Positions 26,349 to 64,000 of a DNA stretch of 64,000 nt are shown here, in pieces; position 1 is the stretch's first letter; every line of letters begins with the position of its first letter. Location: contig NZ_FMZV01000012.1 in NCBI RefSeq assembly GCF_900101475.1, positions 1-64,000 of the forward strand. The letters run 5' to 3'. The notes below the pieces were generated by a model. The model saw only the letters and a program-made list of their open reading frames with translations. It was not told the DNA's origin and made no database searches. The position numbers and the translations under genes are program-made. Source of the stretch: Ruegeria marina (lineage in GTDB: Bacteria; Pseudomonadota; Alphaproteobacteria; Rhodobacterales; Rhodobacteraceae).

Positions 26349-26399
26349 AATGATAATACTCACATACGTTATCGGCAATCAAGAGGAGATGCGAACCGG

Positions 26400-27602: not shown

Positions 27603-29126
27603 ATGATCTCGCTAAGCCCCGGGTCCACCGACCTGGCCACGCTCCGCAACATTTATCGCACCGGCGCGCCCGTCCGGCTGGACCCCACGGCGCGCGCGGG
27701 CGTCGATGCTGCCGCCGCCATGGTGGCCAGGGCCGCTGCGGGGGAGGCAGCCGTCTATGGCATCAACACCGGCTTCGGCAAGCTCGCCTCGACCAAGATC
27801 GCGGCCAAGGATACCGCCACCCTGCAACGCAACCTGATCCTCAGCCATTGCTGCGGCGTGGGCCAGCCGCTGGGCGAGGCGCGCACAAGGCTGATGATGG
27901 TGCTGAAACTTTTGTCGCTGGGCCGCGGCGCCTCGGGCGTGCGCTGGCAAGTCATCGAACTGATCGAGGCGATGCTGGAGCGCGGCGTGATCCCGGTGGT
28001 GCCGGAACAGGGCTCGGTCGGGGCCTCGGGCGACCTGGCGCCGCTGGCGCATATGACGGCGGCGATGATCGGCGCGGGCGAGGCGATGTTCCAGGGCCGC
28101 CGCATGGCCGCCGACCAGGCGCTGGCCGAGGCCGGGCTGACCCCGGTCGTGCTGGGCCCGAAAGAGGGGCTGGGCCTGATCAACGGCACCCAGTTTTCCA
28201 CCGCAAACGCGCTGGCCGGCCTGTTCGACGCCTGGCGCATGGCCGAGGCGTCGATGGTCATCGCCGCGCTGTCGACCGATGCGATCATGGGCTCGACCGC
28301 GCCGCTGGTGCCCGAGATCCACGCCCTGCGCGGCCATGCCGGCCAGATCGACGTGGCGCGCGGCATGCGCAAGCTGATGAAGGGCTCGGAGATCCGCGAG
28401 AGCCATCGCGAAGGCGACACCCGCGTGCAGGACCCCTATTGCATCCGCTGCCAGCCGCAGGTGGTGGGCGCGGCGCTCGATGTGCTGCGCATGGCGGCCC
28501 GCACGCTGGAGATCGAGGCCAATGCCGTCACCGACAACCCGCTGGTGCTGGTGGAACGGGGTCAGATCGTCTCGGGCGGCAATTTCCATGCCGAATATGT
28601 GGGTTTCGCCGCCGACCAGATCGCGCTGGCCGTGGCCGAGATCGGTGCCATCGCACAGCGACGTGTGGCCTTGATGGTCGACCCGACGCTCAGCCACGAT
28701 CTGCCACCGTTTCTGACCCCTGATCCGGGCCTGAACTCGGGCTTCATGATCGCCGAGGTGACGACGGCGGCGCTGATGAGCGAGAACAAGCATCTGGCCA
28801 ATCCCTGCGTGACCGACTCGACCCCGACTTCGGCCAACCAGGAGGACCATGTCAGCATGGCTGCCCATGGGGCGCTGCGCCTGCGCCGGATGACTGACAA
28901 CCTGTCGGTGATCCTCGGCGTGGAACTGCTGTGTGCCGCGCAGGGGATCGAGGCGCGCGCGCCGCTGGTCACGTCGGAGCGGTTGCAGGCGGTGATCGCC
29001 TATCTGCGCGCCCAGGTGCCGACGCTGGCCGAGGACCGCTATCTCGCCCCCGATATCGAGACCGCCGCGGCCATGGTGCGGGACGGCGATATCGCCCGTG
29101 TGGCCGGGATGGAGGTGGCGGCATGA
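27603..29126 (+). CDS. hutH: histidine ammonia-lyase
   Basis: A 507-residue enzyme deaminating L-histidine to trans-urocanate. The self-forming MIO prosthetic group comes from Ala-Ser-Gly 141-143 in [14 protein letters not shown]. Other family stretches are [39 protein letters not shown] and NQEDHVSMA. The ATG directly follows the hutI stop, and its own stop overlaps the hutG start (ATGA). Confidence 0.97.
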
Positions 29127-29902
29127 TCGAGGTTACCTGCGCCGACAGCCCGCTGGTTCTGGGCCTGCCGCATACCGGCACCGATCTGCCCGACGGAATT
29201 GCCGGAAGGCTGAACGAAACCGGCCGCGCGCTGGCCGATACCGATTGGCACATTCACGACCTCTATACGGGGCTGGTGCCGGCAACGACCGTGCGCACCA
29301 CCGTGCATCGCTATGTGATCGACGTGAACCGCGACCCCGAGGGCGTCAGCCTCTACCCGGGCCAGAACACCACCACGCTCTGCCCGCTGACCGATTTCGA
29401 CGGAAACCCGATCTGGCGCGCGGGGCAGGAACCCGACGCCGCCGAGATCGCCCACCGCCGCGACGCCTGGCATGCGCCCTATCACGCGGCCCTTGCGACC
29501 GAACTGGAGCGGGTGCGCGCGCTGCACGGGTTTGCCGTGCTCTACGATTGCCATTCTATCCGCAGCCATATCCCGTTCCTGTTTGACGGCACCCTGCCGG
29601 ACTTCAACATCGGCACCAACATGGGGGCAACCTGTGCGCCTGAGGTCGAAAGGGGCGTTCTGAAAATCTGCGCCGATGCAGAGGGTTACACGCACATCCT
29701 CAATGGCCGCTTCAAGGGCGGCTGGACTACCCGCCACTATGGCCGCCCGGCCGAGGGGCTGCACGCCATCCAGATGGAACTGGCGCAATCCACCTATATG
29801 ACCGAGGCCGCGCCCTGGACCTATCTGCCCGACCGGGCGGACCGGTTGCGCGCCTACCTCACCCAGATCCTGACCCTGCTCACAGAATGGAGGCCGGCAT
29901 GA
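29123..29902 (+). CDS. hutG: N-formylglutamate deformylase
   Basis: A 259-residue N-formylglutamate amidohydrolase (FGase fold), producing glutamate and formate. The ATG at 29123 overlaps the hutH stop. Zn-site candidates appear in [25 protein letters not shown] and [14 protein letters not shown], with [13 protein letters not shown] near the end, all typical of the family. It is paired functionally with HutF. The stop overlaps the hutU ATG (ATGA). Confidence 0.94.
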
Positions 29903-31578
29903 CCGATCCCCGCAAGAATACCCGCGACATCTATCCCCCCACCGGCACCGAGATCACCGCGAAAAGCTGGCTGACCGAGGCACCGCTGCGGATGCTGATG
30001 AACAACCTGCACCCCGACGTGGCCGAGAACCCGCATGAACTGGTGGTCTACGGCGGCATCGGCCGCGCCGCCCGCACCTGGGACGATTTCGACCGCATCG
30101 TCGCCAGCCTGCGCGAGCTGGACGAGGACCAGACCCTGCTGGTGCAATCCGGCAAACCGGTCGGCGTCTTCCGCACCCACAAGGACGCGCCGCGTGTGCT
30201 GATCGCAAACTCGAACCTGGTGCCGCACTGGGCCACCTGGGACCATTTCAACGAACTGGATAAAAAGGGCCTGGCCATGTATGGCCAGATGACCGCCGGA
30301 TCGTGGATTTACATTGGAACCCAAGGCATTGTGCAGGGAACTTACGAGACCTTCGCCGAGGCCGGACGCCAGCATTACGGCGGCGACCTGACCGGCAAAT
30401 GGATCCTGACCGGCGGTCTTGGCGGCATGGGCGGCGCCCAGCCGCTGGCCGCCGTGTTCGCTGGCGCCTGCTGCCTCGCCGTTGAATGTGACGAAACCCG
30501 CGCCGATTTCCGCATCCGTACCAGATATTGCGATGAGAAGACCCACTCGCTGGACGAAGCGCTGGCGATGATCGACCGTTGGACCAGGGCGGGCGAGGCC
30601 AAGTCGGTTGCCCTGATCGGCAACGCGGCAGACGTTTTCCCGGAAATCCTGCGTCGTTCCAAAGAGGGCGGCATGTGCCCCGATATCGTGACCGACCAGA
30701 CCTCGGCTCACGATCCGGTGCACGGCTACTTGCCACTGGGCTGGACCGTTGCCGAATGGCGCGAACGGCAGGAAAGCAACCCGAAACGGGTGGAGAAAGA
30801 GGCCCGCGCCTCGATGCGTGTGCAGGTCGAAGCCATGGCGGCCTTCCACGAGATGGGCGTTCCGACCGTGGATTACGGCAACAACATCCGCCAGATGGCA
30901 CTGGAAGAGGGGTTCGAGAACGCCTTTGCCTTCCCCGGTTTCGTACCCGCCTATATCCGCCCGCTGTTCTGCCGTGGCATCGGCCCGTTCCGCTGGTGCG
31001 CGCTGTCGGGCGACCCTGAGGATATTCGCAGGACCGACGCAAAAATGAAGGAACTGTTCCCCGAGAACGAACACCTGCACCGCTGGCTCGACATGGCGCA
31101 GGAGCGGATCGCCTTCCAGGGCCTGCCGGCGCGGATCTGCTGGATCGGCCTGGGCGACCGGCACCGGGCGGGACTGGCCTTCAACGAGATGGTGCGCACC
31201 GGCGAGTTGAAGGCCCCGGTCGTGATCGGGCGTGATCACCTCGACAGCGGCTCGGTGGCCTCTCCGAACCGAGAGACCGAGGCGATGATGGACGGTTCGG
31301 ACGCGGTCAGCGACTGGCCGCTGCTGAACGCGCTTTTGAATACCGCCAGCGGCGCGACCTGGGTGTCGCTGCATCACGGCGGTGGCGTTGGTATGGGCTT
31401 TTCCCAGCATTCCGGCATGGTGATCTGCTGCGACGGCACCGAGGATGCCGACCGCCGCATCGCCAACGTGCTGTGGAACGATCCGGCAACCGGCGTCATG
31501 CGGCACGCCGATGCGGGATACGAGATCGCGCGCGACTGCGCCCGCGAACACGGCCTGAACCTGCCGGCGATCCTCTAG
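29899..31578 (+). CDS. hutU: urocanate hydratase
   Basis: A 559-residue NAD+-containing enzyme hydrating urocanate to 4-imidazolone-5-propionate. The ATG at 29899 overlaps the hutG stop. Diagnostic stretches are [21 protein letters not shown] in part ([17 protein letters not shown]), [53 protein letters not shown] and [20 protein letters not shown]. Active-site Cys is in [17 protein letters not shown]. It closes the hutIHGU operon. Confidence 0.97.
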
Positions 31579-31588
31579 GCTAGGGAGA

Positions 31589-31659
31589 GGGGCGTTGCCC
31601 CGGCCGACAAAATTCGTCGAATTTTGTCGCCTCCCCCCGAGGACTTGGAAAGGATGAAG
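31589..31659 (+). repeat. modular intergenic palindromic element, copy F
   Basis: After the hutU stop come a GGGGC-gtt-GCCCC hairpin (31589-31601), a 10-bp perfect hairpin (arms CGACAAAATT and AATTTTGTCG, 31605-31629), CTCCCCCCGAGGACTT and GGATGAAGG. The part order is the same as in copies C and E, though the inner hairpin sequence is unrelated. Confidence 0.65.
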
Positions 31660-48026: not shown

Positions 48027-48686
48027 ATGGAATGGAAGATCACCGACGGGTTGACCGATTACGAAGAGGCCGTGGCCTTCATGGAGGCGCGCGCCGCGGC
48101 TATCGCCGCGGGCGAGGCGGAAGAATGCATCTGGCTGCTGGAACATCCGCCGCTTTATACCGCCGGGACCTCGGCCCGGCGCGAGGATCTGACCGACCCG
48201 GACCGTTTTCCGGTCCATGGAAGCAAGCGGGGCGGGCAATATACCTATCACGGCCCCGGTCAGCGGGTGGTCTATGTCATGCTCGACGTCGGCAAGCGTG
48301 GTCACGACGTGCGCCGCTTCGTCCAGCAGCTTGAGGAATGGGTGATCGCGGCGCTGGCAGAGTTCAACGTGCGGGGCGAAATCCGCGAAGGGCGTGTCGG
48401 CGTCTGGGTGCGTCGCGACGACAAGCCGCTTACAGTCAGCGGGAAACCGGCCGAGGACAAGATTGCCGCCATCGGAATCCGCATTCGGAAGTGGGTCAGT
48501 TTTCACGGCATTTCGATCAATGTCGAACCCGACCTCGAGCATTTTTCCGGTATCGTGCCCTGCGGAATCAGCGAATTCGGAGTTACCTCTCTGGTCGATC
48601 TGGGGTTGCCCGTGACCCTGGCCGATGTCGATGTCGCGTTGCGCAGCAGCTTTGAAAAGGTGTTCGGAGAGACTGCGGCGGTCTGA
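48027..48686 (+). CDS. lipB: octanoyltransferase LipB
   Basis: A 219-residue enzyme moving octanoyl from acyl carrier protein to lipoyl domains. Motifs are [34 protein letters not shown], the catalytic Lys in [16 protein letters not shown] and Cys in [15 protein letters not shown]. The usual RGG/TYHGPGQ patch is intact. It is convergent with the LuxR-hydrolase gene, stops 3 bp apart. Confidence 0.96.
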
Positions 48687-48689
48687 CCT

Positions 48690-50342
48690 TCACTCAGGCA
48701 ACTCGTCGATGGCATCAAGCACGACTTCGGGGCGTTCATAGATCAGGAACTGGCCGACGTTGTCCAGTTTGCGAAAACTTACGTTCGTGCGCTTTGCGGT
48801 AAATTCCTGAACCGCGTTGACCGGAACAACCGGATCCAGCGCGCCATGCAGCTGGATCACCGGCTTGCCGGTCTGGGGCAGGGCAGAGAACCAGTCCGAG
48901 ACCATGACCCGCGAATCGCTGACAAAACCGTCGGTGCCGGATTGCGCGGCAAATCGATAGCCCGCGTGCATGAGTTCTGACAGATGCAAGCGGTCGACCA
49001 CGGCGCGCTCGTGGCTGTCGGGGGGATAAAGCGCATCCATGAAGGTCTGGACGTTCTCGCTGTCGATCAGCGAAATACCGGCGCGTACGAAAAAGGGCAG
49101 CAGGTTTGGCGCCCAGCGCGCAGTGTACGCCATGATCCGCTGGCGCCGGGCCATGCCTGCGTAATGCTCTCGCCGAAGTATCGGGCCGCAGCCGGCCACC
49201 GCGACCATGCCGCGAATTCGCGCATCGCCACCAGCGCAGACAACATGGCCCTGAACCGATCCCGCCATATGGCCCAGGATCGCAACCCTCTTCAGCCCGA
49301 ACCGGTCGATCAACTCGAGGACATGTTCGGACATGACTTCCAAATTGGCCATCGGATCGGATACCGGATCCGATCGCCCATATCCGGGACGCACCGGTGC
49401 CAGAACGCGCAGGCCACGCTGATGAAACCGCGGCTTGAGATATTCAAGCGGGGCCATTCCGTCCAGCATGCCGTGCAGATAGATCACCGGATGCCCATCG
49501 GGTGCGCCACATTGGTAGAGCTGCATCTTGAGGCCGGTGCGCATCTCAAGAACTTCGTTTCGCAGGTCGACGGCTCCGGGATGTCCCGCAGTACTCAACT
49601 GGTTTCCACGGTCGATCAGGAATGCGACCAGCCGGATCAGGTCCACCTGTCCCGGTGCACCGGTCTTGGCCAGCACCGACTTGGTCTGGTTTCGCACCGT
49701 GTGTTCGGATTTGCGGGATTTTTCGGCAATCTCCTTCAGGCTGCGCCCATCCATCAGGTTGCGGACGATGTCCACTTCGGCCGGCGAAAGGCCGAATGAA
49801 GCGACAAGCATCCGTTCCGCCGCCGGCGTCCACTGGTAGTCGAGACCCTCGATCATCAGCTGGCCCGCCGTATCCGGACAGGTGGTGACCCGGGCGATCA
49901 GGTGACGGGGGCGTATGTCGGTGTTCAGCACCATCGTCTGCGCGTTGATCCTTCCGGCTCGCGCGGACTCCAGCAAGCCGTCGAGCATCTGTACGCTTTG
50001 TGCGGCCAGATGTGGTCTCAGCGCCGCGACGTCGGCAGGATTGTTCAGCGTTCTGCGGGCCTGACGCCCGGCTGCGCGCACCTTGCCGTCGGCGCCTGCC
50101 AGTATCACGAACCCCGGGATCCCGTTGATGCGCCGCTCGAGTTCCGACTGAGGGGCCTTTCGCCCGAGCTGTTCGAGAATAACATGTGCGCGCCGGAAAT
50201 GGTCCTGCAACTCGGGATCGATAGGCAACTCCGAACCGGATGACATGTCGTCCACATCGGACAAGACGCCAGCCTGCTGCAACAGGCGCCCCAGATGATC
50301 GTCCCAGGCCGACATGACCCGGTCGTAGAGATCCGGCCGCAA
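48690..50342 (-). CDS. LuxR-type HTH protein fused to a catalytically degenerate alpha/beta-hydrolase
   Basis: 550 residues from the TTG at 50342; the conserved frame runs on to an ATT at 50414 with an ideal AAGGAGG (see that site). Residues about 65-170 are PAS-like. Residues 184-243 form a LuxR-type HTH (LSPAEVDIVRNLMDGRSLKEIAEKSRKSE... in two parts: LSPAEVDIVRNLMDG, SLKEIAEKSRKSEHTV). Residues 270-550 form an alpha/beta-hydrolase fold (GHPVIYLHGMLDGM, RPGYGRSDP). The nucleophile elbow reads GHMAG with Met359 for Ser, and the His position is Gln531 (VGQFLIYERPE), while Asp503 remains. A ligand-sensing transcription factor is more likely than an enzyme. Confidence 0.8.
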   Translation of the reverse strand: MRPDLYDRVMSAWDDHLGRLLQQAGVLSDVDDMSSGSELPIDPELQDHFRRAHVILEQLGRKAPQSELERRINGIPGFVILAGADGKVRAAGRQARRTLNNPADVAALRPHLAAQSVQMLDGLLESARAGRINAQTMVLNTDIRPRHLIARVTTCPDTAGQLMIEGLDYQWTPAAERMLVASFGLSPAEVDIVRNLMDGRSLKEIAEKSRKSEHTVRNQTKSVLAKTGAPGQVDLIRLVAFLIDRGNQLSTAGHPGAVDLRNEVLEMRTGLKMQLYQCGAPDGHPVIYLHGMLDGMAPLEYLKPRFHQRGLRVLAPVRPGYGRSDPVSDPMANLEVMSEHVLELIDRFGLKRVAILGHMAGSVQGHVVCAGGDARIRGMVAVAGCGPILRREHYAGMARRQRIMAYTARWAPNLLPFFVRAGISLIDSENVQTFMDALYPPDSHERAVVDRLHLSELMHAGYRFAAQSGTDGFVSDSRVMVSDWFSALPQTGKPVIQLHGALDPVVPVNAVQEFTAKRTNVSFRKLDNVGQFLIYERPEVVLDAIDELPE

Positions 50343-50413
50343 GACCGTCTCGTAGATCGCTGCGATGATCTGTTCCCGGTTCTGTGCAAAGGATTTTTCG
50401 GTGTCGTCGCGAA

Positions 50414-50428
50414 TGGGTCCACCTCCTT
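50414..50428 (-). promoter_or_regulatory. ribosome-binding site deciding an ATT start
   Basis: On the minus strand AAGGAGG (50422-50428) lies 7 bases before ATT at 50414, in frame with the LuxR-hydrolase gene and open to it. The 24 codons gained have the conserved look of the family (EQIIAAIYETVLRPDLY). No ATG, GTG or TTG occurs in frame between the upstream stop and 50342. ATT start codons are rare, so this is a candidate, not a certainty. Confidence 0.5.
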
Positions 50429-50472
50429 GATTATCCTCAACCTAGGAGAACTTTGCGCCGATACAATCGCCC

Positions 50473-50530
50473 GGATGGGTTATACCATCCTGATCGGCGT
50501 GAAATTGTTGTTGAAATAACCCAAATGGGT
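50473..50530. promoter_or_regulatory. paired dyads upstream of the LuxR-hydrolase gene
   Basis: GGATGGGTTATACCATCC (50473-50490) has 6-bp arms and the size of a lux-box. ACCCAAATGGGT (50519-50530) is a second dyad. Both contain TGGGTTAT, in opposite orientation (50476-50483 and 50516-50523), 40 bp apart, about four helix turns. They could be operators for the LuxR-type protein itself. Confidence 0.4.
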
Positions 50531-50656
50531 CATGCCGTGCAGGTCGGACGCATGGCAAGATCCGCAGTACCGTTCAGTGAGTGAGTGGTGTTTTCAAAAG
50601 TCGGGTGCTTGTGCCGTTCCCCATGACGGCTTCTGGCGCCAGTTGTTTCCCCTTCT

Positions 50657-50692: not shown

Positions 50693-51622
50693 TCAGGCCG
50701 GATTGCTGCCGATCCTGCTGGGCTGAAGGCAGGCGTGGGTGGCGCATTCCATTTCCAGTGTCGAATGACCGATCCCGAACTTCTGATCCAGCCCCGATTT
50801 GACCCGGGCCTTGATCGCGTCGGCATCCTGCCAGAATCCTGACCGCAGCACCAGATGGGCGGTCAGGGCGGACTTGTCCTCCTGCAGGCACCAAAGATGC
50901 AGGTGGTGCACGGCTTGCACCCCCTCGATGCTCTCGACATAGTCGGCGACCTGTTCCGGATCGAGGCCGGGCGGCGTGCCCAGCATCAGGATGCGTACGG
51001 TCCCGCCGATCTCGGAGCGGACATGCCACAGGATGTAGGTCGCGATCATCAGTGTCACGAGCGGATCGACCCAGGTCCAGCCGAACCGGATGACGGCCAC
51101 CCCGGCCACGATCACGGCAACCGAACCCAGCGCATCGGCGACATTGTGCAGGAAGGCGGCCCGGATGTTGATCGAGGTTCTGGACAGCGACCAGGTCAAG
51201 GCGGCGGTCACAAGGTCGACGACCAAAGCCAGCGCGGCAATCCAGACCACCAGCCAGCCGTCGATCGGCTGCGGGTCGATGAAGCGCATCACGCCCTCGT
51301 AGGCCAGAAACAGCGCCAGGACGACCAGAGTGGTGTAGTTGACCAGCGCGGCCACCACCTCGATCCGGCCATAGCCGAAGCTCATACGGTTGTCGGCGGG
51401 TCGCCGGGCGACCTTGCGCGCAAGGAAGGCGATGATCAGGGCCACCGCATCCGAGAAGTTGTGCAGCGCGTCCGCGATCAGCGCCAGCGAGCCGGACAGC
51501 AGACCGCCCACAATTTGCGCCAGGGTCAACGCGATGTTGACTGCGATGGCCCAGGCGACACGCTGGTCGCCTGCGGCAGCGTCAACATGATGATGGCCGT
51601 GGCCATGATGATCCTGTGTCAT
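50693..51622 (-). CDS. cation diffusion facilitator (CDF) family efflux transporter
   Basis: A 309-residue six-helix membrane protein. ATG 51622 begins the His-rich tail MTQDHHGHGHHHVDAAAG. The two metal-binding sites are ADALHNFSDAVAL (helix II) and FLHNVADALGSVAV (helix V). The cytoplasmic C-terminal domain has VQAVHHLHLWCLQEDKSALTAHLVL. The His-rich N-terminus and layout fit Zn2+ or Co2+ export (CzcD/ZitB type). HIT-protein gene lies upstream in the same direction. Confidence 0.92.
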   Translation of the reverse strand: MTQDHHGHGHHHVDAAAGDQRVAWAIAVNIALTLAQIVGGLLSGSLALIADALHNFSDAVALIIAFLARKVARRPADNRMSFGYGRIEVVAALVNYTTLVVLALFLAYEGVMRFIDPQPIDGWLVVWIAALALVVDLVTAALTWSLSRTSINIRAAFLHNVADALGSVAVIVAGVAVIRFGWTWVDPLVTLMIATYILWHVRSEIGGTVRILMLGTPPGLDPEQVADYVESIEGVQAVHHLHLWCLQEDKSALTAHLVLRSGFWQDADAIKARVKSGLDQKFGIGHSTLEMECATHACLQPSRIGSNPA

Positions 51623-51703
51623 CCGGATGCGTTCCTCGTACCGGTTCGCAGCCCTGGCTCGTCCCTGCAGCGGCCGCAGGTTCAAGAGGCCCGCATGACA
51701 TTT

Positions 51704-54375: not shown

Positions 54376-55019
54376 GTTCGGAATATCCTCGGTTCCTGGG
54401 TTTCATGTTGCATCGCCGCGATCTCGGCCAGAAAGGCGGTGCCTGACAGGGCGGACAGATCCGACGCCAGAGCCGCCTCGGCCCGCGCGGCGCAGCGGGG
54501 CGCCATCCGGTGGACCAGCGCCTGCGCCGCCGTCTGGCCCAGCGGCATCAACCTTTGCGCTGCCGAGACAAGGTTGGCGACGAAGGCGTGCAGATACATC
54601 TTGGCGGCAAGATGCAGCGGCAGGCCCAAAGCATGCGCCGCGCAGCCGAGCGCGACCGGATAGGTCAATTCGGTATCGTCCCCGCCCCAGACCCGCGACG
54701 TGACCCTGACAAATGCCGCGCCCTGCTGGACGGTCTCGATCCGGCGTTCGACAGGGCCGGCAAAGGCCCGCGCCATCGCGTCGATCTCTTGCACCTCGTC
54801 CCTTGTGGCCGCGCGCGCCGCCGCAATCAGAAACAGGGCATCGGACCAGCCCGCGCCAAATTCGAGCAGGTCGCAAAGCCAGTTCTCCAGATCGTCCGCA
54901 TCCGCCACCGCGCCGGTCTGCACCAGCCGCTCCAACCCGTGGGAATAGGCAAATGACCCAACGGGATAGGCGGGCGACAGCCATTGCGCCAGGGTCAGCA
55001 GATCAAGGTCAGTGGCCAT
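54372..55019 (-). CDS. ureF: urease accessory protein UreF
   Basis: A 215-residue all-helical protein. ATG 55019 ([30 protein letters not shown] in parts: [24 protein letters not shown]) is the normal family start; longer in-frame starts reach into ureE. It forms the UreD-UreF-UreG maturation complex. The start overlaps the end of ureE by 11 bp, and the stop overlaps ureG by 4. Confidence 0.94.
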
Positions 55020-55500
55020 GGGCGTGAGGGGAACCCTGCGCGTGAGAATGCCCGTGGTCATGCCCGTGAGTGCGCCCGTGCCCATAGGCCCCGCCTTCGG
55101 GCGCAAAGGGGGCGTGGATCTCGCTCACCTGCGCGCCGAGCCTTTCCAGCATGTCGCGAATCACGTGGTCCTGCCGGATCAGCAACCGGTCCGCCTCGAT
55201 CTGGCAGGGCGTATGGCGGTTGCCGATATGCCAGGCCAGCCGGGTCAGGTTGTCGCCCGTCACTGCCAGCAGCGGTTCGTTTGCGGCGACCACCTCGATC
55301 AGGCGCCCGTCGCTGAGTTCAAAGGCGTCGCCGCCGTCCAGCGACGTGGTCTGGGCCAGATCGACAAGGAAATCCTCGCGATGCAGGGTGGTCAGCATCC
55401 TGCGGCGCAGGAAACGGTTTTCGTAGGTGAGCAGGACGGACCCGTCCGCCTCGCTCCAGTCGCCGTGACGGCGGATCCTCTGGGTGGTGGCTACTTGCAT
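55009..55500 (-). CDS. ureE: urease accessory metallochaperone UreE
   Basis: A 163-residue protein with ATG at 55500. The C-terminal domain carries the metal-site His-Arg (LAWHIGNRHTPCQIEADRLLIRQDHVIRDML, seen as HIGNRHTPCQIE). A His-rich tail HGHDHGHSHAQ...HAHGH serves as a nickel reservoir. It overlaps ureF. Confidence 0.94.
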   Translation of the reverse strand: MQVATTQRIRRHGDWSEADGSVLLTYENRFLRRRMLTTLHREDFLVDLAQTTSLDGGDAFELSDGRLIEVVAANEPLLAVTGDNLTRLAWHIGNRHTPCQIEADRLLIRQDHVIRDMLERLGAQVSEIHAPFAPEGGAYGHGRTHGHDHGHSHAQGSPHAHGH

Positions 55501-55511
55501 CTCGGCTCCCT

Positions 55512-57221
55512 TCAGAACAGGAAATAGCGTTGTGCCATGGGCAGGACTTCGGCCGGCTGGCAGGTGAGCAATTCTCCATCCGCGCGCACCTCGTAGGTTT
55601 CGGGATGGACTTCGACACGCGGCAGGGCATCGTTCAGCTTCAGATCCCGTTTGCCGATGGCGCGGGTATTCCTGACAGCCAGCGTCTGCTTGGCCAGTCC
55701 AAGCCTTGCCCGGACACCATCGGCCTGCGCCGCCTCGGAAACGAAGATCACCGCCGAGTTCTCGACCGAGCGGCCATAGGCGCCCCACATGGGCCGGGAA
55801 TAGACCGGCTGCGGGGTCGGGATCGAAGCATTGGGGTCGCCCATCTGGGCGCAAACGATAGTGCCGCCCAGCAGCACCATCTCGGGCTTGACGCCGAAGA
55901 AGGCGGGGTTCCACAGCACCAGATCGGCGCGCTTGCCCTCCTCGATGCTGCCGATCTCATGCGCAATCCCATGCGCAATCGCCGGGTTGATCGTGTATTT
56001 CGCGATATAGCGGCGAACCCGGAAATTGTCGTTGTCGCCGGTTTCCTTAGGCAAACGGCCGCGCTGTTTCTTCATCTTGTCCGCAGTCTGCCAGGTGCGG
56101 ATCAGCACCTCGCCTACGCGGCCCATCGCCTGGCTGTCGGACGCGATGATGGAAAACGCCCCCATGTCGTGCAGGATGTCCTCGGCCGCGATGGTCTCGC
56201 GCCGGATGCGGCTTTCGGCGAATGCCACGTCCTCGGGGATCGACTTGTCGAGATGGTGGCAGACCATCAGCATGTCGAGATGCTCCTCGACCGTGTTCAC
56301 GGTAAAGGGGCGCGTGGGGTTGGTCGAGGACGGCAGGACATGCTCCTCGCCACAGATCTTGATGATGTCCGGGGCATGGCCGCCGCCCGCGCCCTCGGTG
56401 TGAAAGGCGTGGATGGTGCGGCCCTTCATGGCGGCCACGGTATTTTCGACAAAGCCGGATTCGTTGAGTGTATCGGTGTGGATCATCACCTGCACGTCCC
56501 AGGCGTCGGCAACCGACAGGCAGCAGTCGATGGCTGCGGGCGTGGTGCCCCAATCCTCGTGCAGTTTCAGGGCGCAGGCTCCGGCCAGCACCTGTTCCTC
56601 GAGCGCGGCGGGGAGCGAGGCGTTGCCCTTGCCCGCAAAGGCCAGGTTCATCGGGAAGGCGTCGGCCGCCTGGAGCATCCGCCCGATATGCCAGGGACCG
56701 GGGGTGCAGGTGGTGGCCAGTGTTCCATGCGCGGGACCGGTGCCGCCGCCCAGCATCGTGGTCAGGCCCGAATGCAGCGCGTCCTCGATCTGTTGCGGGC
56801 AGATGAAATGGATGTGACTGTCGAACCCGCCTGCCGTCAGGATGCGGCCTTCGCCCGCGATCGCCTCGGTGCCGGGGCCGACAATGATGTCGACGCCTGG
56901 CTGGCTATCCGGGTTGCCGGCCTTGCCGATCTTGTGGATGCGCCCGTCCTTCAGGCCCACGTCGGCCTTGTAGATGCCGGTCCAATCGACGATCAGCGCA
57001 TTGGTGATGACCGTGTCGACGGCGCCCGCCGCGCGCGTGGTCTGGCTTTGTCCCATTCCGTCGCGGATCACCTTGCCGCCCCCGAACTTGACCTCTTCGC
57101 CATAGGTGGTCAGGTCGCGCTCGACCTCGATGAAAAGCTCGGTGTCGGCCAGCCGCACCCGGTCGCCCGTGGTCGGGCCATACATGGCGGCATAGTCCGA
57201 GCGTTTGATCTCAGCCGGCAT
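55512..57221 (-). CDS. ureC: urease alpha subunit
   Basis: A 569-residue catalytic subunit hydrolysing urea to ammonia and carbamate. ATG 57221 overlaps the ureB stop (TGATG). The di-nickel site is complete: HIHFICPQQ (His136, His138), carbamylated Lys219 in ALKLHEDWG, His221 and the flap [14 protein letters not shown], with the active-site stretch [16 protein letters not shown]. Confidence 0.98.
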
Positions 57222-57526
57222 CAGAGTTCCCCCATGATCTGACCGTTGAACCCGAAAATGCGGCGATTCCCGCCGATGGGGATCAACTGCACCTCTCGCC
57301 GCTGGCCCGGTTCGAACCGAACGGCGGTGCCGGCTGCGATGTCGAGCCGCATCCCGCGCGCTGCGGCCCGGTCGAAGTCGAGCGCGGGGTTGGTTTCCGC
57401 GAAATGGTAGTGCGAGCCGACCTGCACCGGCCGGTCGCCGGTATTGGCCACTACCAGAGTGACCACCGTTCGCCCGGCATTCAGCGTGATCGTGCCGGAG
57501 GCCGTCAGTACTTCTCCCGGGATCAT
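57221..57526 (-). CDS. ureB: urease beta subunit
   Basis: A 101-residue subunit. ATG 57526 ([19 protein letters not shown]) is the family-standard start. [19 protein letters not shown] and [11 protein letters not shown] are diagnostic. The start overlaps the stop of the small His-rich gene (ATGA), and the stop overlaps ureC. Confidence 0.97.
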
Positions 57527-57687
57527 TTGCGGATCCTGAGCCCGGCCAGCAACGCCAGGCCACATGCGGTCAGACCCAGCGAAACGGCCAGCCAGTCGCC
57601 GGAACCATGCGGATGCATATGCGTGCCCTCATGCGCCAGTACGGGCGCGGCCAGCAGGATCAGGGAAAGCGATAGAAGGTGTTTCAT
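57523..57687 (-). CDS. small His-rich membrane protein in the urease operon
   Basis: A 54-residue gene on the minus strand. ATG 57687 lies 8 bases after AGGAG, and TGA at 57525-57523 overlaps the ureB start. It has a signal peptide ([18 protein letters not shown]), then [10 protein letters not shown], with five His in ten residues ideal for nickel or other metal, and one membrane helix ([18 protein letters not shown]). It reads as a periplasm-facing membrane-bound metal-binding peptide. I do not know a named family. Confidence 0.7.
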
Positions 57688-57699
57688 GAGCATGTCTCC

Positions 57700-58002
57700 T
57701 CAGCGGATGGGTTCGTGAACGGTGACGAGCTTGGTGCCGTCGGGAAAGGTGGCCTCGACCTGGACCTCGGGGATCATCTCGGGTACGCCCTCCATGCATT
57801 GGGCGCGGGTGACGACCTGTGCGCCGGCTTCCATCATGTCGGCGACCGAGCGCCCGTCACGGGCTCCTTCGACAACGGCGTCGGTGATCAGGGCGATGGC
57901 CTCGGGGTAGTTCAGCCTGACGCCGCGCGCCAGACGGCGGCGCGCCACTTCGGCGGCCATGGCGATGAGCAGCTTGTCTTTTTCGCGTGGGGTCAGTTGC
58001 AT
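57700..58002 (-). CDS. ureA: urease gamma subunit
   Basis: A 100-residue subunit. [55 protein letters not shown] and the tail [15 protein letters not shown] are all typical. It follows ureD directly and precedes the small His-rich gene. Confidence 0.97.
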
Positions 58003-58003
58003 G

Positions 58004-58903
58004 TCAGATCATCCAGGGTCTTGGCAGAGAGTGGCAGGTCAGGCGGTTCAGCATTGGAACCAGCGTTTGGCGCAGCAGGAAGCTGTCGGCGGCCAACAGG
58101 CGGATCAGCAGCATGTCCTCGCCCACGAGGCTGGCGCCTCCGGTGGCAGGCAAGGCGGCGCGGATCCAGGCCAGGTGCGCGGGGGCATCCGGTCGGATCA
58201 GTACAAGGCTGGCGATCGCGCCGGCGCCGCCGGCCACATGCGGGCGGGCCAGTTGTGCGCTGATGTCGCCGGCGAAATCCAGCCTGTCGATATACGCGGG
58301 CTTGCCGCTGCGGACTATTTCGATTCGATCGGAAAACCATGCTCGATCAATCGTTTCCCCCATGGCGGCACGACCGAACACGAGCGATTCCGCAAGCAGC
58401 AACCGCGCATCTGTGGCAAGGTCGATCCGCAGGCTGCGCGCAATCCTGCACCCGTTGAACAGGATGGTTTCCTGCGGCAGCCAGTTGAGTTCAGCGCCAG
58501 CCTCCGCGCGAAGGCGTGTGTCAATGCGGCCCGGCTCTGCATCGCGGGCGCGGTAGGCGCGCTCGGCGGCCTGCGTCGTCAGTGTCGCGGCAGCGCCCGG
58601 ACCGACCTCGGCGCGCAAGGAGAACCGGTCGCCGCCGGTCACGCCTCCGGCCGTATTGACAAGAACCGCTTGCGCGGCAGCACTCGAGCGGCGCGGGAAA
58701 AGCAGCTTGAGCGACCCTGACTGGCGCAGGCCAGACAGTTCGCCGCGGCCTTCGCGCAACTTGAACGAAACCGCCACCGCGCCCTCGGCCCGTGGTTGGG
58801 TCGTGGCGGTCGGCCGGGACTCTATGTGGTGCACTGCGGTAATGGCGATGTCCTCGGGGCGGGCGTTTCGTTGCTCAAAGTGACAGCACAGCCTCGCGGC
58901 CAA
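58004..58903 (-). CDS. ureD: urease accessory protein UreD
   Basis: A beta-sheet accessory protein that docks on urease. [33 protein letters not shown] is present in parts ([14 protein letters not shown]), with [28 protein letters not shown] and [10 protein letters not shown], all diagnostic. The start is uncertain: TTG at 58903 gives 299 residues, while GTG at 58834 gives 276 and starts nearer the family's usual N-terminus. It is the first gene of the ure operon and diverges from urtA. Confidence 0.9.
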
Positions 58904-59230
58904 GTCAGTGATCGCAGGCAGTTTGAAAGGTGATACCGCAATGACTGCCTAAATAGTGGGCGATATCGCCAAGGTATGCTCAAAAATGGGGCGAGTGATC
59001 TCGTGAGCGCTCCGGCAATTCAACGACCTGTTGCGCCGGATGCTGCAATGCAGAAGCGATAAGGGTGCCCGAGTTGAGGAGAACTGCTCCGAATGCGGGT
59101 GTGTGGCGACCAGACGAATTGGAGCTCTGACCGGCCGCCACACGGATGCAACACGTTGTTGCAGGGGTGACCTAGGCCGTAATGCCCGGCTGGGCAAGGC
59201 CCGGAAGCGCGCCCCTGCGAGGAGACAAAC
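58904..59230. promoter_or_regulatory. ureD-urtA divergent regulatory region
   Basis: The 327-bp gap between the two urea operons holds two palindromes: GGCGATATCGCC (58959-58970) near ureD, and TGCAACACGTTGTTGCA (59146-59162) 69 bp before urtA. The second resembles an NtrC site (TGCA half-sites, same spacing as TGCAC-N7-GTGCA, A in place of C). No protein gene is evident in the gap. Confidence 0.5.
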
Positions 59231-60511
59231 ATGACCCAACTGAAATCCTCTCTCGCAACTGCCGCGCTGCTCGCCGCGTTCGGCGCCCCGGCCATGGCTG
59301 CCGACTGCCCGATCAAGGTGGGCGTGCTGCATTCGCTGTCCGGGACCATGGCGATCTCGGAAACCACGCTGAAGGACACCATGCTGATGCTGATCGAACA
59401 GCAGAACGCCAAGGGCGGTCTGCTGGGCTGCGAGCTTGAAGCCGTGGTGGTCGATCCCGCCTCGGACTGGCCGCTCTTCGCCGAAAAGGCACGCGAGTTG
59501 CTGACCGTGCATAATGTGGATGTGATCTTCGGCAACTGGACCAGCGTCAGCCGCAAATCGGTGCTGCCGGTGATCGAGGAACTGAACGGTCTGCTGTTCT
59601 ATCCGGTCCAGTACGAGGGCGAGGAGAGCTCGAAGAACGTGTTCTACACCGGTGCTGCGCCGAACCAGCAGGCGATCCCGGCGACCGATTATTTCCTCGA
59701 GGAACTGGGCGTCGAGAAATTCGCGCTGCTGGGCACCGACTATGTCTATCCCCGGACCACCAACAACATCCTCGAATCCTATCTCAAGCAGAAAGGCATC
59801 GCGGAGGCCGATATCTTCGTCAACTACACGCCCTTCGGCCATTCCGACTGGTCCAAGATCGTGGCCGACGTGGTAGCACTTGGCGCCGATGGCAAGAAGG
59901 TGGGCGTGATCTCGACCATCAACGGGGACGCAAACATCGGCTTCTACAAGGAGCTTGCGGCTGCGGGCGTATCCGCCGACGACATTCCGGTGGTGGCCTT
60001 CTCGGTCGGCGAGGAAGAACTGTCTGGTCTCGATACCACCAACCTGGTCGGGCATCTCGCGGCCTGGAACTACTTCCAGTCGGCCGATACCGAGATCAAT
60101 GCCGAGTTCGTGAAGGCCTGGAAGGCCAGGATGGGCGAGGACCGCGTGACCAACGACCCGATGGAGGCTCATTACATCGGCTTCAACATGTGGGTGAACG
60201 CGGCCACCGCCGCAGGAACCACCGATGTGGACGCCGTGCGCAGCGCCATGTACGGGCAGGAATTCCCCAACCTGACCGGCGGCACAGCCGTCATGCTTCC
60301 CAACCATCACCTGGCCAAGCCGGTGCTGATCGGAGAGATCCAGGCTGATGGCCAGTTCGACATCATCAGCCAGACCTCCGAGGTTCCCGGCGACGCCTGG
60401 ACCGACTTCCTGCCGGAATCGGCGGTGCTGATGTCGGATTGGAAGGACCTTGGCTGCGGCATGTACAACACCCAGACAAAGACCTGCGTGCAGACCCTGT
60501 CCAACTACTGA
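59231..60511 (+). CDS. urtA: urea ABC transporter substrate-binding protein
   Basis: A 426-residue periplasmic protein with a signal peptide (LATAALLAAFGAPAMA). IKVGVLHSLSGTMAISETTL, VVVDPASDWPLFAEKAREL, FGNWTSVSRKSVLPVIEEL, LFYPVQYEGEESSKNVFYTGAAPNQQ in part and PDP-like DYVYPRTTNNIL are typical of UrtA. It is the first gene of urtABCD, and AGGAGACAAAC precedes the ATG. Confidence 0.96.
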   Translation: MTQLKSSLATAALLAAFGAPAMAADCPIKVGVLHSLSGTMAISETTLKDTMLMLIEQQNAKGGLLGCELEAVVVDPASDWPLFAEKARELLTVHNVDVIFGNWTSVSRKSVLPVIEELNGLLFYPVQYEGEESSKNVFYTGAAPNQQAIPATDYFLEELGVEKFALLGTDYVYPRTTNNILESYLKQKGIAEADIFVNYTPFGHSDWSKIVADVVALGADGKKVGVISTINGDANIGFYKELAAAGVSADDIPVVAFSVGEEELSGLDTTNLVGHLAAWNYFQSADTEINAEFVKAWKARMGEDRVTNDPMEAHYIGFNMWVNAATAAGTTDVDAVRSAMYGQEFPNLTGGTAVMLPNHHLAKPVLIGEIQADGQFDIISQTSEVPGDAWTDFLPESAVLMSDWKDLGCGMYNTQTKTCVQTLSNY

Positions 60512-60568
60512 TCGGGACAGACGGGAAGGGGCGCTCCGCCCCTTCCGACCACAGGCGGATTTCACGAC

Positions 60569-62521
60569 ATGACAAGATTGATGATCGCGCTGACCGCGCT
60601 GTTTCTGCTGTGCACGCAGGCGATGGCGCAAGACGCCACGGTTCAGAGCGTACTCCAGGCCCATCGCGAGACGATCGAGAAGGGCTCGCGCAAGTCGATC
60701 GGCGCGGCGATCGACGCGATTGCCGCCAGCGGATTACCGCAGGCACAGGACGTGCTTCAGGTCTGGGCCGCCAAGGAGATGTGGCAGCGTGGCGGCGACG
60801 GGCTGTTCTTTCGAGGGGTCGAGAAAACCGGTCGCCAGGTGGAACTGTTCGATTTCGACAGCGGGCAGAGCGTGGGAATGCTCGACCGTGATGATCTGGA
60901 GCAGATCAAGCCCAACAGCGGGGTACGTGCCCTGATCGGCACGGCGCTGGTGCAGTTCCAGTTGTCCGATCCCGACCCGATCCGGCGGGCCGAGGCGCTG
61001 GACGCGATCCAGCGCAGCCCGGCTGCCGAGTTGCTGGCCCCCCTGCGCGCCTCGATTCCGGCGGAACCCGACCCGGCGCTGAAAGACCGCAAGATGCGGG
61101 TGGAGCGCTTGCTGACCATGGCCTACGACCCTGACGACCAGGCCCGGATCACTGCTATCGAGGATATGTCGGGCGACCTGGGGGTCGACATGCGCGCGAC
61201 GCTGAACCCCTTGCTCGTGACCCGTATCGTGCTGGCCGAAGGGCTGCCCGCAACCGCCAACATCCGGCGCGAAGTGAAGCCGGGCGATCCGGCGCTTGGC
61301 CTGGCGGCCGCCTATGACATGCTGATCGCGGCTGGTCTGGCCCAGCCGATCCCGGATGCAGAGGCCCGCAAGGCGCTTCTGATCGAGCACGCCGCCGACG
61401 GGCTGGTTGCCGGAATCCCCCTCCATCAACTGGACACCCAGGCAGCGCGAGATGCGGCCTATGTGCAACTGGCTCAGGCCGGGCTGGTGCCGCGCTGGTC
61501 CACCGCCGAGGCGCCCGAGGTGGTGGTGACGCGGCACCGCTTTGTCGAAGTTTACAACGAACCCTCTGCCGCGGTTACCGAAGCGGCGGAACAGGCGCTG
61601 GACGAGATCGAGATGCGCGTCGGCCTGAACCAGGCGTTCGATCTGGGGCTGGACGCGCTTTCGCTCGCCTCGATCTACTTTCTGGCCGCCATAGGTCTGG
61701 CCATCACCTTCGGCGTCATGGGGGTGATCAACATGGCCCATGGCGAATTCATCATGATGGGGGCCTATACCGGCTACATGGTGCAGCAGGTCATCGCCGA
61801 TCACACGCTGTCGATCCTGGTGGCGATCCCGCTGGCCTTTGCCGTCACCTTTGCCGCCGGTGTCGCGATGGAGCGGCTGGTGATCCGGCATCTCTACAAC
61901 CGGCCGCTGGAAACGCTGCTGGCCACCTTCGGCATCTCGATCGCCATGCAGCAACTGGCCAAGAACATCTTCGGCACGCAAGCGCGCCCGCTGACCGCGC
62001 CGGGCTGGCTGGACGGGGCCTGGGTGCTGAACGACGTGGTGTCGATCAGCTATATACGCATCGCTATCTTTGTCCTTGCGCTGATCTTTCTGGGCCTATT
62101 CCTGTTCATCATGCGGCGCACCCGTCTGGGGCTGGAGACCCGCGCGGTCACCCAGAACCCGCGCATGGCGGCGTCGATGGGCATCAACCCCGACCGCATC
62201 AACATGCTGACCTTCGGTCTCGGCTCCGGCATCGCGGGCATCGCGGGCGTCGCCATCGGCCTCTTTGCCAAGGTCACATCGGAGTTGGGCAGCGATTACA
62301 TCGTTCAAAGCTTCATGACCGTGGTGGTGGGCGGCGTCGGCAACATCTGGGGCACGCTGGCGGGTGCGGCGATGATCGGCACGCTGCAAAAGGGGATCGA
62401 ATGGCTCAACCCCTCGAACACTCTGGCGGCGCAGACCTACATGATCATCTTCATCATCATCTTCATTCAGTTCCGGCCACGGGGGATCATTGCCCTCAGG
62501 GGTCGCGCGGCGGGGGATTGA
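60569..62521 (+). CDS. urtB: urea ABC transporter permease UrtB
   Basis: A 650-residue protein. Residues 1-20 are a signal-like hydrophobic stretch. Residues up to about 340 form the extra N-terminal domain characteristic of UrtB, rich in helices and acidic residues. The LIV-type permease follows: GLAITFGVMGVINMAHGEFIMMGAYTGY, ERLVIRHLYNRPLETLLATFGIS, GLETRAVTQNPRMAASMGIN and QFRPRGIIAL. It inserts in the inner membrane with UrtC. Confidence 0.95.
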   Translation: MTRLMIALTALFLLCTQAMAQDATVQSVLQAHRETIEKGSRKSIGAAIDAIAASGLPQAQDVLQVWAAKEMWQRGGDGLFFRGVEKTGRQVELFDFDSGQSVGMLDRDDLEQIKPNSGVRALIGTALVQFQLSDPDPIRRAEALDAIQRSPAAELLAPLRASIPAEPDPALKDRKMRVERLLTMAYDPDDQARITAIEDMSGDLGVDMRATLNPLLVTRIVLAEGLPATANIRREVKPGDPALGLAAAYDMLIAAGLAQPIPDAEARKALLIEHAADGLVAGIPLHQLDTQAARDAAYVQLAQAGLVPRWSTAEAPEVVVTRHRFVEVYNEPSAAVTEAAEQALDEIEMRVGLNQAFDLGLDALSLASIYFLAAIGLAITFGVMGVINMAHGEFIMMGAYTGYMVQQVIADHTLSILVAIPLAFAVTFAAGVAMERLVIRHLYNRPLETLLATFGISIAMQQLAKNIFGTQARPLTAPGWLDGAWVLNDVVSISYIRIAIFVLALIFLGLFLFIMRRTRLGLETRAVTQNPRMAASMGINPDRINMLTFGLGSGIAGIAGVAIGLFAKVTSELGSDYIVQSFMTVVVGGVGNIWGTLAGAAMIGTLQKGIEWLNPSNTLAAQTYMIIFIIIFIQFRPRGIIALRGRAAGD

Positions 62522-62525
62522 CGCC

Positions 62526-63755
62526 ATGAGGGATTCATTCGTCGCGCGGCATCCTTCGGTGCTGATCTTCCTGGCCCTGCTGGCGCTTTTTACCCTGGGC
62601 GTGACCGTTCTGGCCGAAGGCTTCGGCATCGGCCTGATCTCGACCAGTTTCGTCAAGACACTGGGCAAGACGATGTGCCTGTGCCTGATCGCGGTCGCGA
62701 TGGACCTGATCTGGGGCTATTGCGGCATTCTCAGCCTCGGCCACTTCGCGTTTTTCGGGCTGGGCGGTTACATGATCGGCATGTGGCTGATGTATGAACG
62801 CACCCGGCTCATCGTCGAAGGGTCGCTGGCCCAGGGCGCGTTGCCGCCCACGGAACAGGAAATCGTGGCTGCCATCGGCACCCAGATCTTCGGCGTGGTG
62901 GGCTCGTCCGAGTTTCCGCTGGTCTGGGCCTTCGCCGACAGCCTTGCCCTGCAACTGGCGCTGGTGGTGCTGGTGCCGGGTCTGCTGGCGCTGGTATTCG
63001 GTTGGCTGGCCTTCCGCAGCCGGGTGACCGGCGTCTACCTGTCGATCCTGACCCAGGCGATGACGCTGGCGCTGGCGCTTTACCTCTTCCAGAACGACAG
63101 CGGGCTGCGCGGCAACAACGGCTTGTCGGGGTTGCAGAACCTGCCGGGCGTCGAGGCGCCGCAATCGGTTGTCAGCCTGTGGTTCTTCTGGGCCTCGGCG
63201 CTGGCGCTGGCGCTGGGCTACCTGCTGGCGGCCTGGATCGTTTCGGGCAAGTTCGGCTCGGTCATCCGCGGTATACGCGACAACGAGGCGCGGGTGCGCT
63301 TCCTCGGCTATTCGGTCGAGATCTACAAGCTGGCCGTCTTCACCCTGACCGCCTGCATCGCCGGGATTGCCGGGGCGCTCTATTACCCGCAGGCGGGTAT
63401 CGTGAACCCGGCCGAGATTGCGCCCATCGCCTCGATCTACCTCGCCGTCTGGGTCGCCATCGGCGGGCGCGGGCGGCTTTACGGCGCGGTGATCGGGGCC
63501 GCGTTCGTCAGCCTGGTGTCCTCGTGGTTCACCGGCGGCCAGATCCCCGACCTGGCGCTGGGTCCGCTGACGATCAGATGGGTGGACTGGTGGACCATCG
63601 TCCTGGGCCTGTCCTTCGTGCTGGTCACGCTGTTTGCGCCCTCGGGCATCGGCGGGCTTTTCGATCTCTGGCAGGGGCGGCGCCATCCCGACCGGCACGG
63701 GGCGGACCTGGGGCCCAACGCGGGCGCGCTGCGCGAAAAGGAGGCCACGGAATGA
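62526..63755 (+). CDS. urtC: urea ABC transporter permease UrtC
   Basis: A 409-residue inner-membrane permease with ATG 62526. CLIAVAMDLIWGYCGILSLGHFAFFGLGGYMIGMWLMYERTR is visible in parts (LIWGYCGILSLGHFAFFGLGG), with SGLQNLPGVE and RDNEARVRFLGYSVEIYKLAVF. Partner of UrtB. Its stop overlaps the urtD ATG (ATGA). Confidence 0.95.
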   Translation: MRDSFVARHPSVLIFLALLALFTLGVTVLAEGFGIGLISTSFVKTLGKTMCLCLIAVAMDLIWGYCGILSLGHFAFFGLGGYMIGMWLMYERTRLIVEGSLAQGALPPTEQEIVAAIGTQIFGVVGSSEFPLVWAFADSLALQLALVVLVPGLLALVFGWLAFRSRVTGVYLSILTQAMTLALALYLFQNDSGLRGNNGLSGLQNLPGVEAPQSVVSLWFFWASALALALGYLLAAWIVSGKFGSVIRGIRDNEARVRFLGYSVEIYKLAVFTLTACIAGIAGALYYPQAGIVNPAEIAPIASIYLAVWVAIGGRGRLYGAVIGAAFVSLVSSWFTGGQIPDLALGPLTIRWVDWWTIVLGLSFVLVTLFAPSGIGGLFDLWQGRRHPDRHGADLGPNAGALREKEATE

Positions 63756-64000
63756 GCACGCTTCTCGAAGTTTCCGGCGTCTCGGTCAGTTTCGACGGGT
63801 TCAAGGCGATCAACAACCTGTCCTTCCGCATCGGTCAGGCCGAGATGCGGGCGGTGATCGGTCCCAACGGGGCCGGCAAGACCACCTTCATGGACATCGT
63901 CACCGGCAAGACCCGGCCCGACGAGGGGCGGGTGCTGTGGGGCGAGCGCAGCCAGTCGCTGCTGGGCATGTCAGAAGCGCAGATCGCGCGGGCCGGGATC
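63752..64000 (+). CDS. urtD: urea ABC transporter ATP-binding protein UrtD (partial, runs off the window)
   Basis: The first 83 residues are visible. LLEVSGVSVSFDGFKAINNLSF leads to the Walker A GPNGAGKTTF and TGKTRPDEGRVLWGE, the LivG-like pattern of UrtD. The ATG 63752 overlaps the urtC stop. The signature motif and Walker B lie beyond the end. Confidence 0.93.
   Translation, partial: MSTLLEVSGVSVSFDGFKAINNLSFRIGQAEMRAVIGPNGAGKTTFMDIVTGKTRPDEGRVLWGERSQSLLGMSEAQIARAGI

What the first reader, a model, noticed from the sequence alone, without database searches (positions are those of the whole stretch)
48690..50530. LuxR-type DNA-binding protein with a dead alpha/beta-hydrolase as receptor
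A PAS-like N-terminus, LuxR HTH in the middle and a hydrolase fold with the nucleophile Ser replaced by Met359 and the His by Gln531, Asp503 kept, is the pattern of hydrolase-derived hormone receptors (known in plants for gibberellin and strigolactone perception). In a bacterium this would be a new kind of small-molecule sensor, possibly for signal lipids or lactones. Paired dyads upstream share TGGGTTAT and could be its operators.
Basis: partly seen in the sequence, partly recalled or inferred. Interest (0 to 1): 0.75.

Follow-up and report, generated by a model that had tools for sequence, protein, structure and literature searches.

The report
Gene switch with a dead enzyme sensor
A marine Ruegeria bacterium carries a DNA-binding regulator whose sensing end looks like an enzyme that has lost its catalytic residues, a pattern kept in its close relatives, so it probably senses a small molecule much as plant hormone receptors do, although neither its signal nor its target genes are known.

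Summary
Window 48690-50414 (-) encodes a 574-residue protein: PAS-like N-terminus, LuxR/GerE HTH, then a complete alpha/beta-hydrolase fold with Met, Asp and Gln at the triad positions. Of the 94 best full-length homologues from the same bacterial family, 0 have Ser plus His; the His position is Gln in 74. All 21 control hydrolases keep Ser/Asp and His. The domain is under purifying selection (omega 0.08-0.25). But weaker-scoring LuxR-hydrolase relatives do keep Ser-Asp-His (7 of 20 in the same family, 7 of 33 outside); on a quick tree they fall outside the window's 96-row, all-broken clade. A palindrome TGACCCANNTGGGTCA lies upstream of 20 of 34 Met/Leu-type members against 1 of 69 others, so the protein probably regulates itself. 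The start codon is probably ATT (50414): AUU/AUC/AUA fills one of two fixed positions in 10 of 14 close homologues against 2 of 79 others. Best reading: a one-component regulator with a ligand-binding pseudo-hydrolase, like plant GID1 in logic. Ligand binding, DNA binding and regulon are untested. Plant receptors and RsbQ are precedents; my searches found no paper on this family.

The parts
48690..50414 (-). Whole coding region, 574 aa, probable start codon ATT (50414-50412), stop TGA 48690-48692
   Evidence: no ATG/GTG/TTG in frame between the upstream stop and the conserved N-terminus
50420..50428 (-). Shine-Dalgarno AAGGAGGTG, 7 nt (from GGAGG) before the ATT codon
   Evidence: Best anti-SD duplex of the in-frame codons tested (-12.5 kcal/mol)
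49845..50150 (-). PAS-like region (residues 89-190: helix, 2 strands, helices, 3 strands)
   Evidence: AlphaFold2 model; Pfam support weak
49629..49796 (-). LuxR/GerE helix-turn-helix (residues 207-262)
   Evidence: PF00196 E 4.1e-6 in the window protein; 23 of 23 alignment members, window included
48693..49562 (-). Pseudo alpha/beta-hydrolase domain (residues 285-574)
   Evidence: PF00561 E 1.5e-12; complete fold, Foldseek best 9wlv TM(target) 0.85
49266..49268 (-).
48834..48836 (-).
   Evidence: Asp in 88 of 94
48750..48752 (-).
   Evidence: Gln in 74 of 94, His in 3 of 94
50516..50533 (-). Distal dyad ATGACCCATTTGGGTTAT, candidate operator
   Evidence: 0 mismatches to ATGACCCAWWTGGGTYA at the homologous place in 5 of 5 genus genomes; <=2 mismatches to TGACCCANNTGGGTCA in 20 of 34 M/L-type promoters
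50466..50483 (-). Proximal dyad ATAACCCATCCGGGCGAT, possible second site
   Evidence: Matched clearly only in G004, weakly in the G003 relic
50568..50596 (-). 29-bp block TGAAAACACCACTCACTCACTGAACGGTA of unknown role
   Evidence: Identical in the four genes and in the G003 relic; its 20-mer occurs once per genome in 5 of 5 genus genomes at <=3 mismatches

Best explanation
A one-component transcription factor. The C-terminal alpha/beta-hydrolase domain has lost the nucleophile and the His and serves as a binding pocket; ligand binding (or loss) is passed to the adjoining LuxR HTH, which binds the palindrome TGACCCANNTGGGTCA in its own promoter and so controls its own level, and perhaps genes with weaker sites. 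The PAS-like N-terminus may be a second input or the dimerisation part. Shown by sequence: domain order, fold (predicted), triad loss across the window's clade, purifying selection, conserved promoter palindrome, conserved synteny. Inferred: ligand binding, DNA binding, direction of autoregulation. Also inferred, with good comparative support: translation starts at AUU, which would keep synthesis low and tied to initiation factor 3.
For: Triad: 0 of the 94 best full-length members of the bacterial family have Ser+His; Gln at the His position in 74 of 94. Control: 21 of 21 hydrolase-domain proteins from related genomes keep S/D and His (their acid column is Asp in 17, Ser in 3, Gly in 1). Fold complete, hydrolase blocks of the model mostly pLDDT 83-97, lowest 72. 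Omega of the hydrolase domain 0.08 (G001/G002) and 0.16-0.25 (window against three congeners, dS near 1), against 0.08-0.15 for the HTH. Clade: the 96-row clade with the window holds no intact triad (support 85, quick tree). Operator: 20 of 34 against 1 of 69 other members (L104) and 1 of 500 mononucleotide shuffles; in five genus genomes sites with <=1 mismatch are the own promoter plus one place in G004.
Against: LuxR-hydrolase relatives with intact Ser-Asp-His exist, 7 of 20 weaker matches in the same bacterial family and 7 of 33 outside, so the sensing role of the fold need not depend on being dead. The nucleophile letter changes at least 27 times and the His-position letter at least 20 times on a 102-row tree, so Gln is common but not fixed. 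No regulon beyond the own promoter was found. No sigma-70-type promoter was recognised, so repressor or activator cannot be told. One of five genus genomes lacks the whole gene, and only 106 of 394 genomes of the family match at E <= 1e-25 (a lower bound), so it is probably not essential.
Confidence: 0.6

Rival explanations
1. The dead hydrolase is a protein-protein interaction or dimerisation module (as in neuroligins, recalled), and the signal enters through the PAS-like N-terminus.
For: The N-terminal region is conserved too (Y21, H72 and W195 match the commonest residue in 92, 91 and 84 of 94); no ligand known.
Against: Gln at the His position (74 of 94) and the kept Asp (88 of 94) lie at the old active site rather than on a surface; residues M421, R426, A432, P436, L439 of the helical insertion (a cap by its place in the fold) are the commonest letter in 80-87 of 94.
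Confidence: 0.22
2. The domain still catalyses something by another chemistry.
For: 3 of 94 members have an Asp at the nucleophile position plus His, like dehalogenases or epoxide hydrolases; 7 of 20 weaker family matches and 7 of 33 outside rows are Ser-Asp-His.
Against: The window protein has neither a nucleophile nor a general base at the triad positions, and neither has any member of its 96-row clade.
Confidence: 0.08
3. A decaying enzyme fusion on its way out, kept only for its HTH.
For: G003 appears to hold only a relic of the gene.
Against: Omega of the hydrolase domain is low, 1.0 to 1.7 times that of the HTH; the domain is full length in 94 members.
Confidence: 0.04
4. The HTH regulates only its own gene and the lipB or HIT neighbours, as a housekeeping loop linked to lipoate or acyl metabolism.
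For: A convergent lipB-like gene in 20 of 25 and a HIT-type gene in 18 of 25 compared loci, window included.
Against: lipB is convergent and the genus scan lists no separate <=2-mismatch site beside it; synteny may simply reflect vertical descent.
Confidence: 0.06

Closest known systems
GID1 gibberellin receptor (plants)
   Same: Hydrolase fold without the catalytic His, no reported activity: Ser116, Asp289, Val319 (passage in PMC3436726)
   Different: GID1 keeps Ser, is not fused to a DNA-binding domain and acts through a partner protein (last two recalled); here Ser is lost too and the HTH is on the same chain
D14 (plants) and RsbQ (Bacillus subtilis)
   Same: Hydrolase-fold signalling proteins; RsbQ is the bacterial precedent (PMC3436726)
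   Different: They keep Ser-Asp-His and are separate proteins; RsbQ works with the phosphatase RsbP. The Ser-Asp-His LuxR-hydrolases seen here would be the nearer counterpart of these
LuxR-type one-component regulators (AHL-type and solos)
   Same: GerE HTH and presumed ligand control
   Different: The sensor here is hydrolase-derived and C-terminal to the HTH; no autoinducer-binding domain was found
Aes-MalT (Escherichia coli, recalled)
   Same: A hydrolase-fold protein controls a LuxR-type regulator
   Different: Aes is a separate, active esterase
Class III cyclases with alpha/beta-hydrolase domains in mycobacteria (recalled; PMC2447327 seen as a search listing, its held text gave only a reference entry)
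   Same: Hydrolase domain fused to a signalling module
   Different: Output is a cyclase, not an HTH

Membership tests
LuxR/GerE HTH regulators | GerE domain PF00196 above gathering score | tested here: met
   26.8 bits against 23.5; 23 of 23 alignment members match at E <= 0.01
LuxR/GerE HTH regulators | Sequence-specific DNA binding | not testable with these tools
   Only indirect: conserved promoter palindrome
AHL-type LuxR | Autoinducer-binding domain | tested here: not met
   No such Pfam or NCBIfam match
alpha/beta hydrolase fold | Fold | tested here: met
   PF00561 48.2 bits against 25.8; model matches 9wlv with TM(target) 0.85
active alpha/beta hydrolases | Nucleophile plus His | tested here: not met
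   Met383 and Gln555
hydrolase-derived hormone receptors (GID1-like) | Dead or impaired triad | tested here: met
   Window protein and 0 of 94 best members with Ser+His; not true of all LuxR-hydrolases
hydrolase-derived hormone receptors (GID1-like) | Binds a small ligand in the former active site | not testable with these tools
   No coordinates or binding data
AUU-start genes (infC, pcnB) | AUU/AUC/AUA start codon | tested here: inconclusive
   Strong comparative support, no protein or ribosome-profiling data

The most novel reading that the evidence does not exclude
A bacterial counterpart of plant hydrolase-derived hormone receptors, on one chain with its DNA-binding domain: a widespread set of one-component regulators in which active LuxR-hydrolase sensors and disarmed ones coexist, the disarmed clade having mostly Gln for the catalytic His, and one branch of it being further set under AUU/AUC/AUA start codons so that its amount answers to translation initiation.
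Probability: 0.4. Interest if true: 0.82.

Novelty: new variant of a known kind. Interest (0 to 1): 0.6.

Why it matters
Plasmid-borne relatives are annotated 'LuxR C-terminal-related transcriptional regulator' or simply 'alpha/beta hydrolase', so a sensor family may be hidden under an enzyme name. Because LuxR-hydrolases with intact, half-lost and fully lost triads exist side by side, even in one bacterial family, the step from enzyme to receptor, known mainly from plants, becomes directly testable in bacteria. A conserved non-AUG start in a regulator would add to a very short list: a paper passage names infC and pcnB as the only AUU-start genes in E. coli (PMC9410913).

Tried and rejected
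Claim withdrawn on checking: I first took the triad loss to hold for the whole bacterial family. Fetching 20 weaker matches that I had left out showed 7 with Ser-Asp-His, so it is now claimed only for the best-scoring members and the window's clade. I lowered the probability of the novel case from 0.42 to 0.40 for this, and that of the lipB-loop rival from 0.15 to 0.06 so that the explanations sum to one.

Regulon by operator scan: sites with <=1 mismatch to ATGACCCAWWTGGGTYA in five genus genomes are the own promoter in each and one place in G004; a 2-mismatch site in G000 and the G004 site lie beside different genes; one non-palindromic 2-mismatch site is shared by G001-G003 (the output was cut in the middle). 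No regulon is claimed. The 29-bp block has no explanation. Rfam over the promoter: only a weak P6 sRNA match, 18.9 bits against a threshold of 50, rejected. Sigma-70 scan: none. The best-SD scan is not a strong start finder alone: best codon ATG in only 6 of 79 other members. Neighbours of the Gly-type clade do not include lipB in the loci tested; not pursued. The per-offset codon count could not anchor eight of nine extra named loci and anchored L167 wrongly; those nine are not counted. Their codons come from one search, which printed eight of the nine (L171 missing).

Rows dropped: the family search scored 3 candidates per genome. Of about 128 listed matches about 36 were not fetched; 20 of these were fetched later and about 16 never for the tally. 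116 hit frames were reduced to 94 by removing duplicates and incomplete frames; one lacks the anchor Tyr and is left out of the start-codon counts (93 = 14+79). Outside the family, of 20 frames eight were kept for the trees (near-copies, fragments and single-domain hits left out); 25 more came, a selection of the matches listed. L176 was left out of the structure alignment because the stretch did not translate through. Three of 24 control loci gave no hydrolase row. The two start-codon positions were chosen after seeing the sequences; one search shows all other offsets as control. The Fisher p-values treat related sequences as independent and are not relied on.

Full report
What is there. On the minus strand, 48690-50414, lies one long frame between a cation-efflux-type transporter gene (ORF 50693-51685) upstream and a convergent lipB-like gene (ORF 48027-48686) downstream (neighbour names are from my reading of their sequences). 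Pfam gives GerE (LuxR HTH) and Abhydrolase_1 above their cut-offs. The N-terminal third has no family, but the AlphaFold2 model (mean pLDDT 82.7, pTM 0.72, 23 sequences) shows there two strands, helices and three strands, a PAS-like order, then a five-helix HTH region and a complete hydrolase fold. The 50 Foldseek matches listed are, by their names, hydrolase-fold proteins; the best is 9wlv, TM 0.85 over the target. phmmer aligns the Ser, Asp and His of 9wlv to Met383, Asp527 and Gln555.

The dead triad among the nearer homologues. The genome has one copy; 4 of 5 genomes of the genus have it. A profile finds matches in 106 of 394 genomes of the bacterial family at E <= 1e-25, with only 3 candidates scored per genome. 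In 94 distinct full-length members, taken from the better-scoring matches, the nucleophile position is G 47, M 17, L 11, D 4, S 4, R 3, A 2 and six singletons; the His position is Q in 74 and H in 3; the acid is D in 88. None has Ser with His. The three with His have Asp at the nucleophile position and may be active. In contrast 21 of 21 hydrolase-domain proteins from related genomes (24 loci tried) have Ser or Asp and His; their acid column is Asp in 17, Ser in 3 and Gly in 1.

Where intact triads occur. The check at the end mattered here. Of 20 weaker matches of the same bacterial family, 7 are Ser-Asp-His, 10 have His and 3 have Gln; four of the seven match the profile nearly end to end, three over HTH and hydrolase. 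Of 33 LuxR-hydrolase rows outside the family 7 are Ser-Asp-His and 1 Cys-Asp-His. On a quick tree of 147 rows the window sits in a clade of 96 (85 of the 94, 5 weaker ones and 6 outside rows; support 85) without an intact triad; all 14 Ser-Asp-His rows lie outside it, and 8 changes between intact and broken suffice. Several deep forks have poor support, the root is a midpoint, long branches meet, and such counts cannot tell gain from loss; enzyme-to-receptor is the plausible, not the proven, direction.

Selection. Nei-Gojobori omega in the hydrolase domain is 0.079 between G001 and G002 and 0.16-0.25 between the window and three congeners, against 0.08-0.15 for the HTH (dS is near 1 in the window comparisons). 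The domain is not decaying. On a 102-row tree the nucleophile letter changes at least 27 times and the letter at the His position at least 20 times, so both vary; Gln is the commonest state, not an invariant.

Operator. Upstream of the gene the Ruegeria relatives share a block around ATGACCCATTTGGGT while much of the surroundings differs. Scored against TGACCCANNTGGGTCA in 260-310 bp upstream, 20 of 34 promoters of the M/L-type clade (25 of the 94 plus 9 named loci) have at most 2 mismatches; 1 of 69 other members does (L104), and 1 of 500 shuffled M/L promoters. The 14 M/L promoters above 2 mismatches are mostly more distant members but include L159, a close one. Within five genus genomes matches with 0 or 1 mismatch are the own promoter in each and one further place in G004. 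G003, which lacks a whole gene, still has the palindrome beside what looks like a relic of both ends of the gene. Autoregulation is the natural reading; its sign cannot be inferred.

Start codon. In the window no ATG, GTG or TTG lies in frame between the preceding stop and the conserved N-terminal stretch. Five of 14 close homologues (window included) share this lack, none of 79 others. In 10 of 14 an ATT, ATC or ATA codon stands 20 or 22 codons before the conserved Tyr, against 2 of 79 others; other offsets give 0 or 1 of 14 (its printed 11 of 15 includes the wrongly anchored L167). In the four Ruegeria genes this codon has the best Shine-Dalgarno of the in-frame codons, -12.5 kcal/mol in the window, but only by 0.1 kcal/mol in G004. 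Among named extra loci L159 (ATT), L169 (ATT), L167 (ATA) and L170 (ATA) have such a codon at these positions, L177 has ATG there, and L160-L162 have TTG candidates instead. Against it: the segment after the first codons evolves fast (omega 0.5-0.7), so only the first few codons speak for translation.

Neighbourhood. Among 25 loci compared (window, G004 and 23 named), 20 share the convergent lipB-like gene and 18 the HIT-type gene, window included; cytochrome oxidase subunit I is near in 15. The locus looks vertically inherited and not part of an evident pathway operon. In the Gly-type loci tested lipB was not found.

Literature. Ten searches of the open library were run. Those aimed at LuxR plus hydrolase listed no title or abstract start on such a regulator; listings only. 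Passages were read in PMC3436726 and PMC9410913; PMC10972967, PMC13136126 and PMC2447327 gave reference entries only. Subscription papers and preprints are not covered.

Verdict. The dead hydrolase of the window protein, its conservation in its clade and the promoter palindrome are solid. The receptor function is the best inference (0.6). The architecture is a new variant of known ideas: hydrolase-derived receptors and LuxR one-component regulators.

Noticed in passing
window 50412-50414 (-), and L007, L008, L009, L072, L087, L088, L093, L094, L096, L159, L167, L169, L170: AUU/AUC/AUA codon, mostly with an upstream SD, at the position where translation should start, like infC and pcnB; gene finders limited to ATG/GTG/TTG would start too late.
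   Followed up: yes
L181 (G003:C1 around 2746257-2746627): Apparent relic of the gene in a congener: promoter, palindrome, a short N-terminal and a C-terminal piece remain.
   Followed up: partly
window 50568-50596 (-): Block TGAAAACACCACTCACTCACTGAACGGTA identical in the four genes and the G003 relic; its 20-mer occurs once per genome in five genus genomes; similar cores upstream of L163 and L167.
   Followed up: partly
L119, L121, L122: LuxR-hydrolase members with Asp at the nucleophile position and His kept, possibly dehalogenase- or epoxide-hydrolase-like sensors.
   Followed up: no
L248, L249, L255, L256, L258, L260, L261 (same bacterial family); L224, L228, L229, L234, L238, L242 (family code f188, another class): LuxR-hydrolase proteins with intact Ser-Asp-His; in f188 near relatives have Asn, Ser or Phe for His: a natural series of triad loss.
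   Followed up: partly
window about 24000-31600 and 55000-63800: Apparent histidine-utilisation genes, and urease and urea-transport-like genes, from the look of the ORFs only.
   Followed up: no
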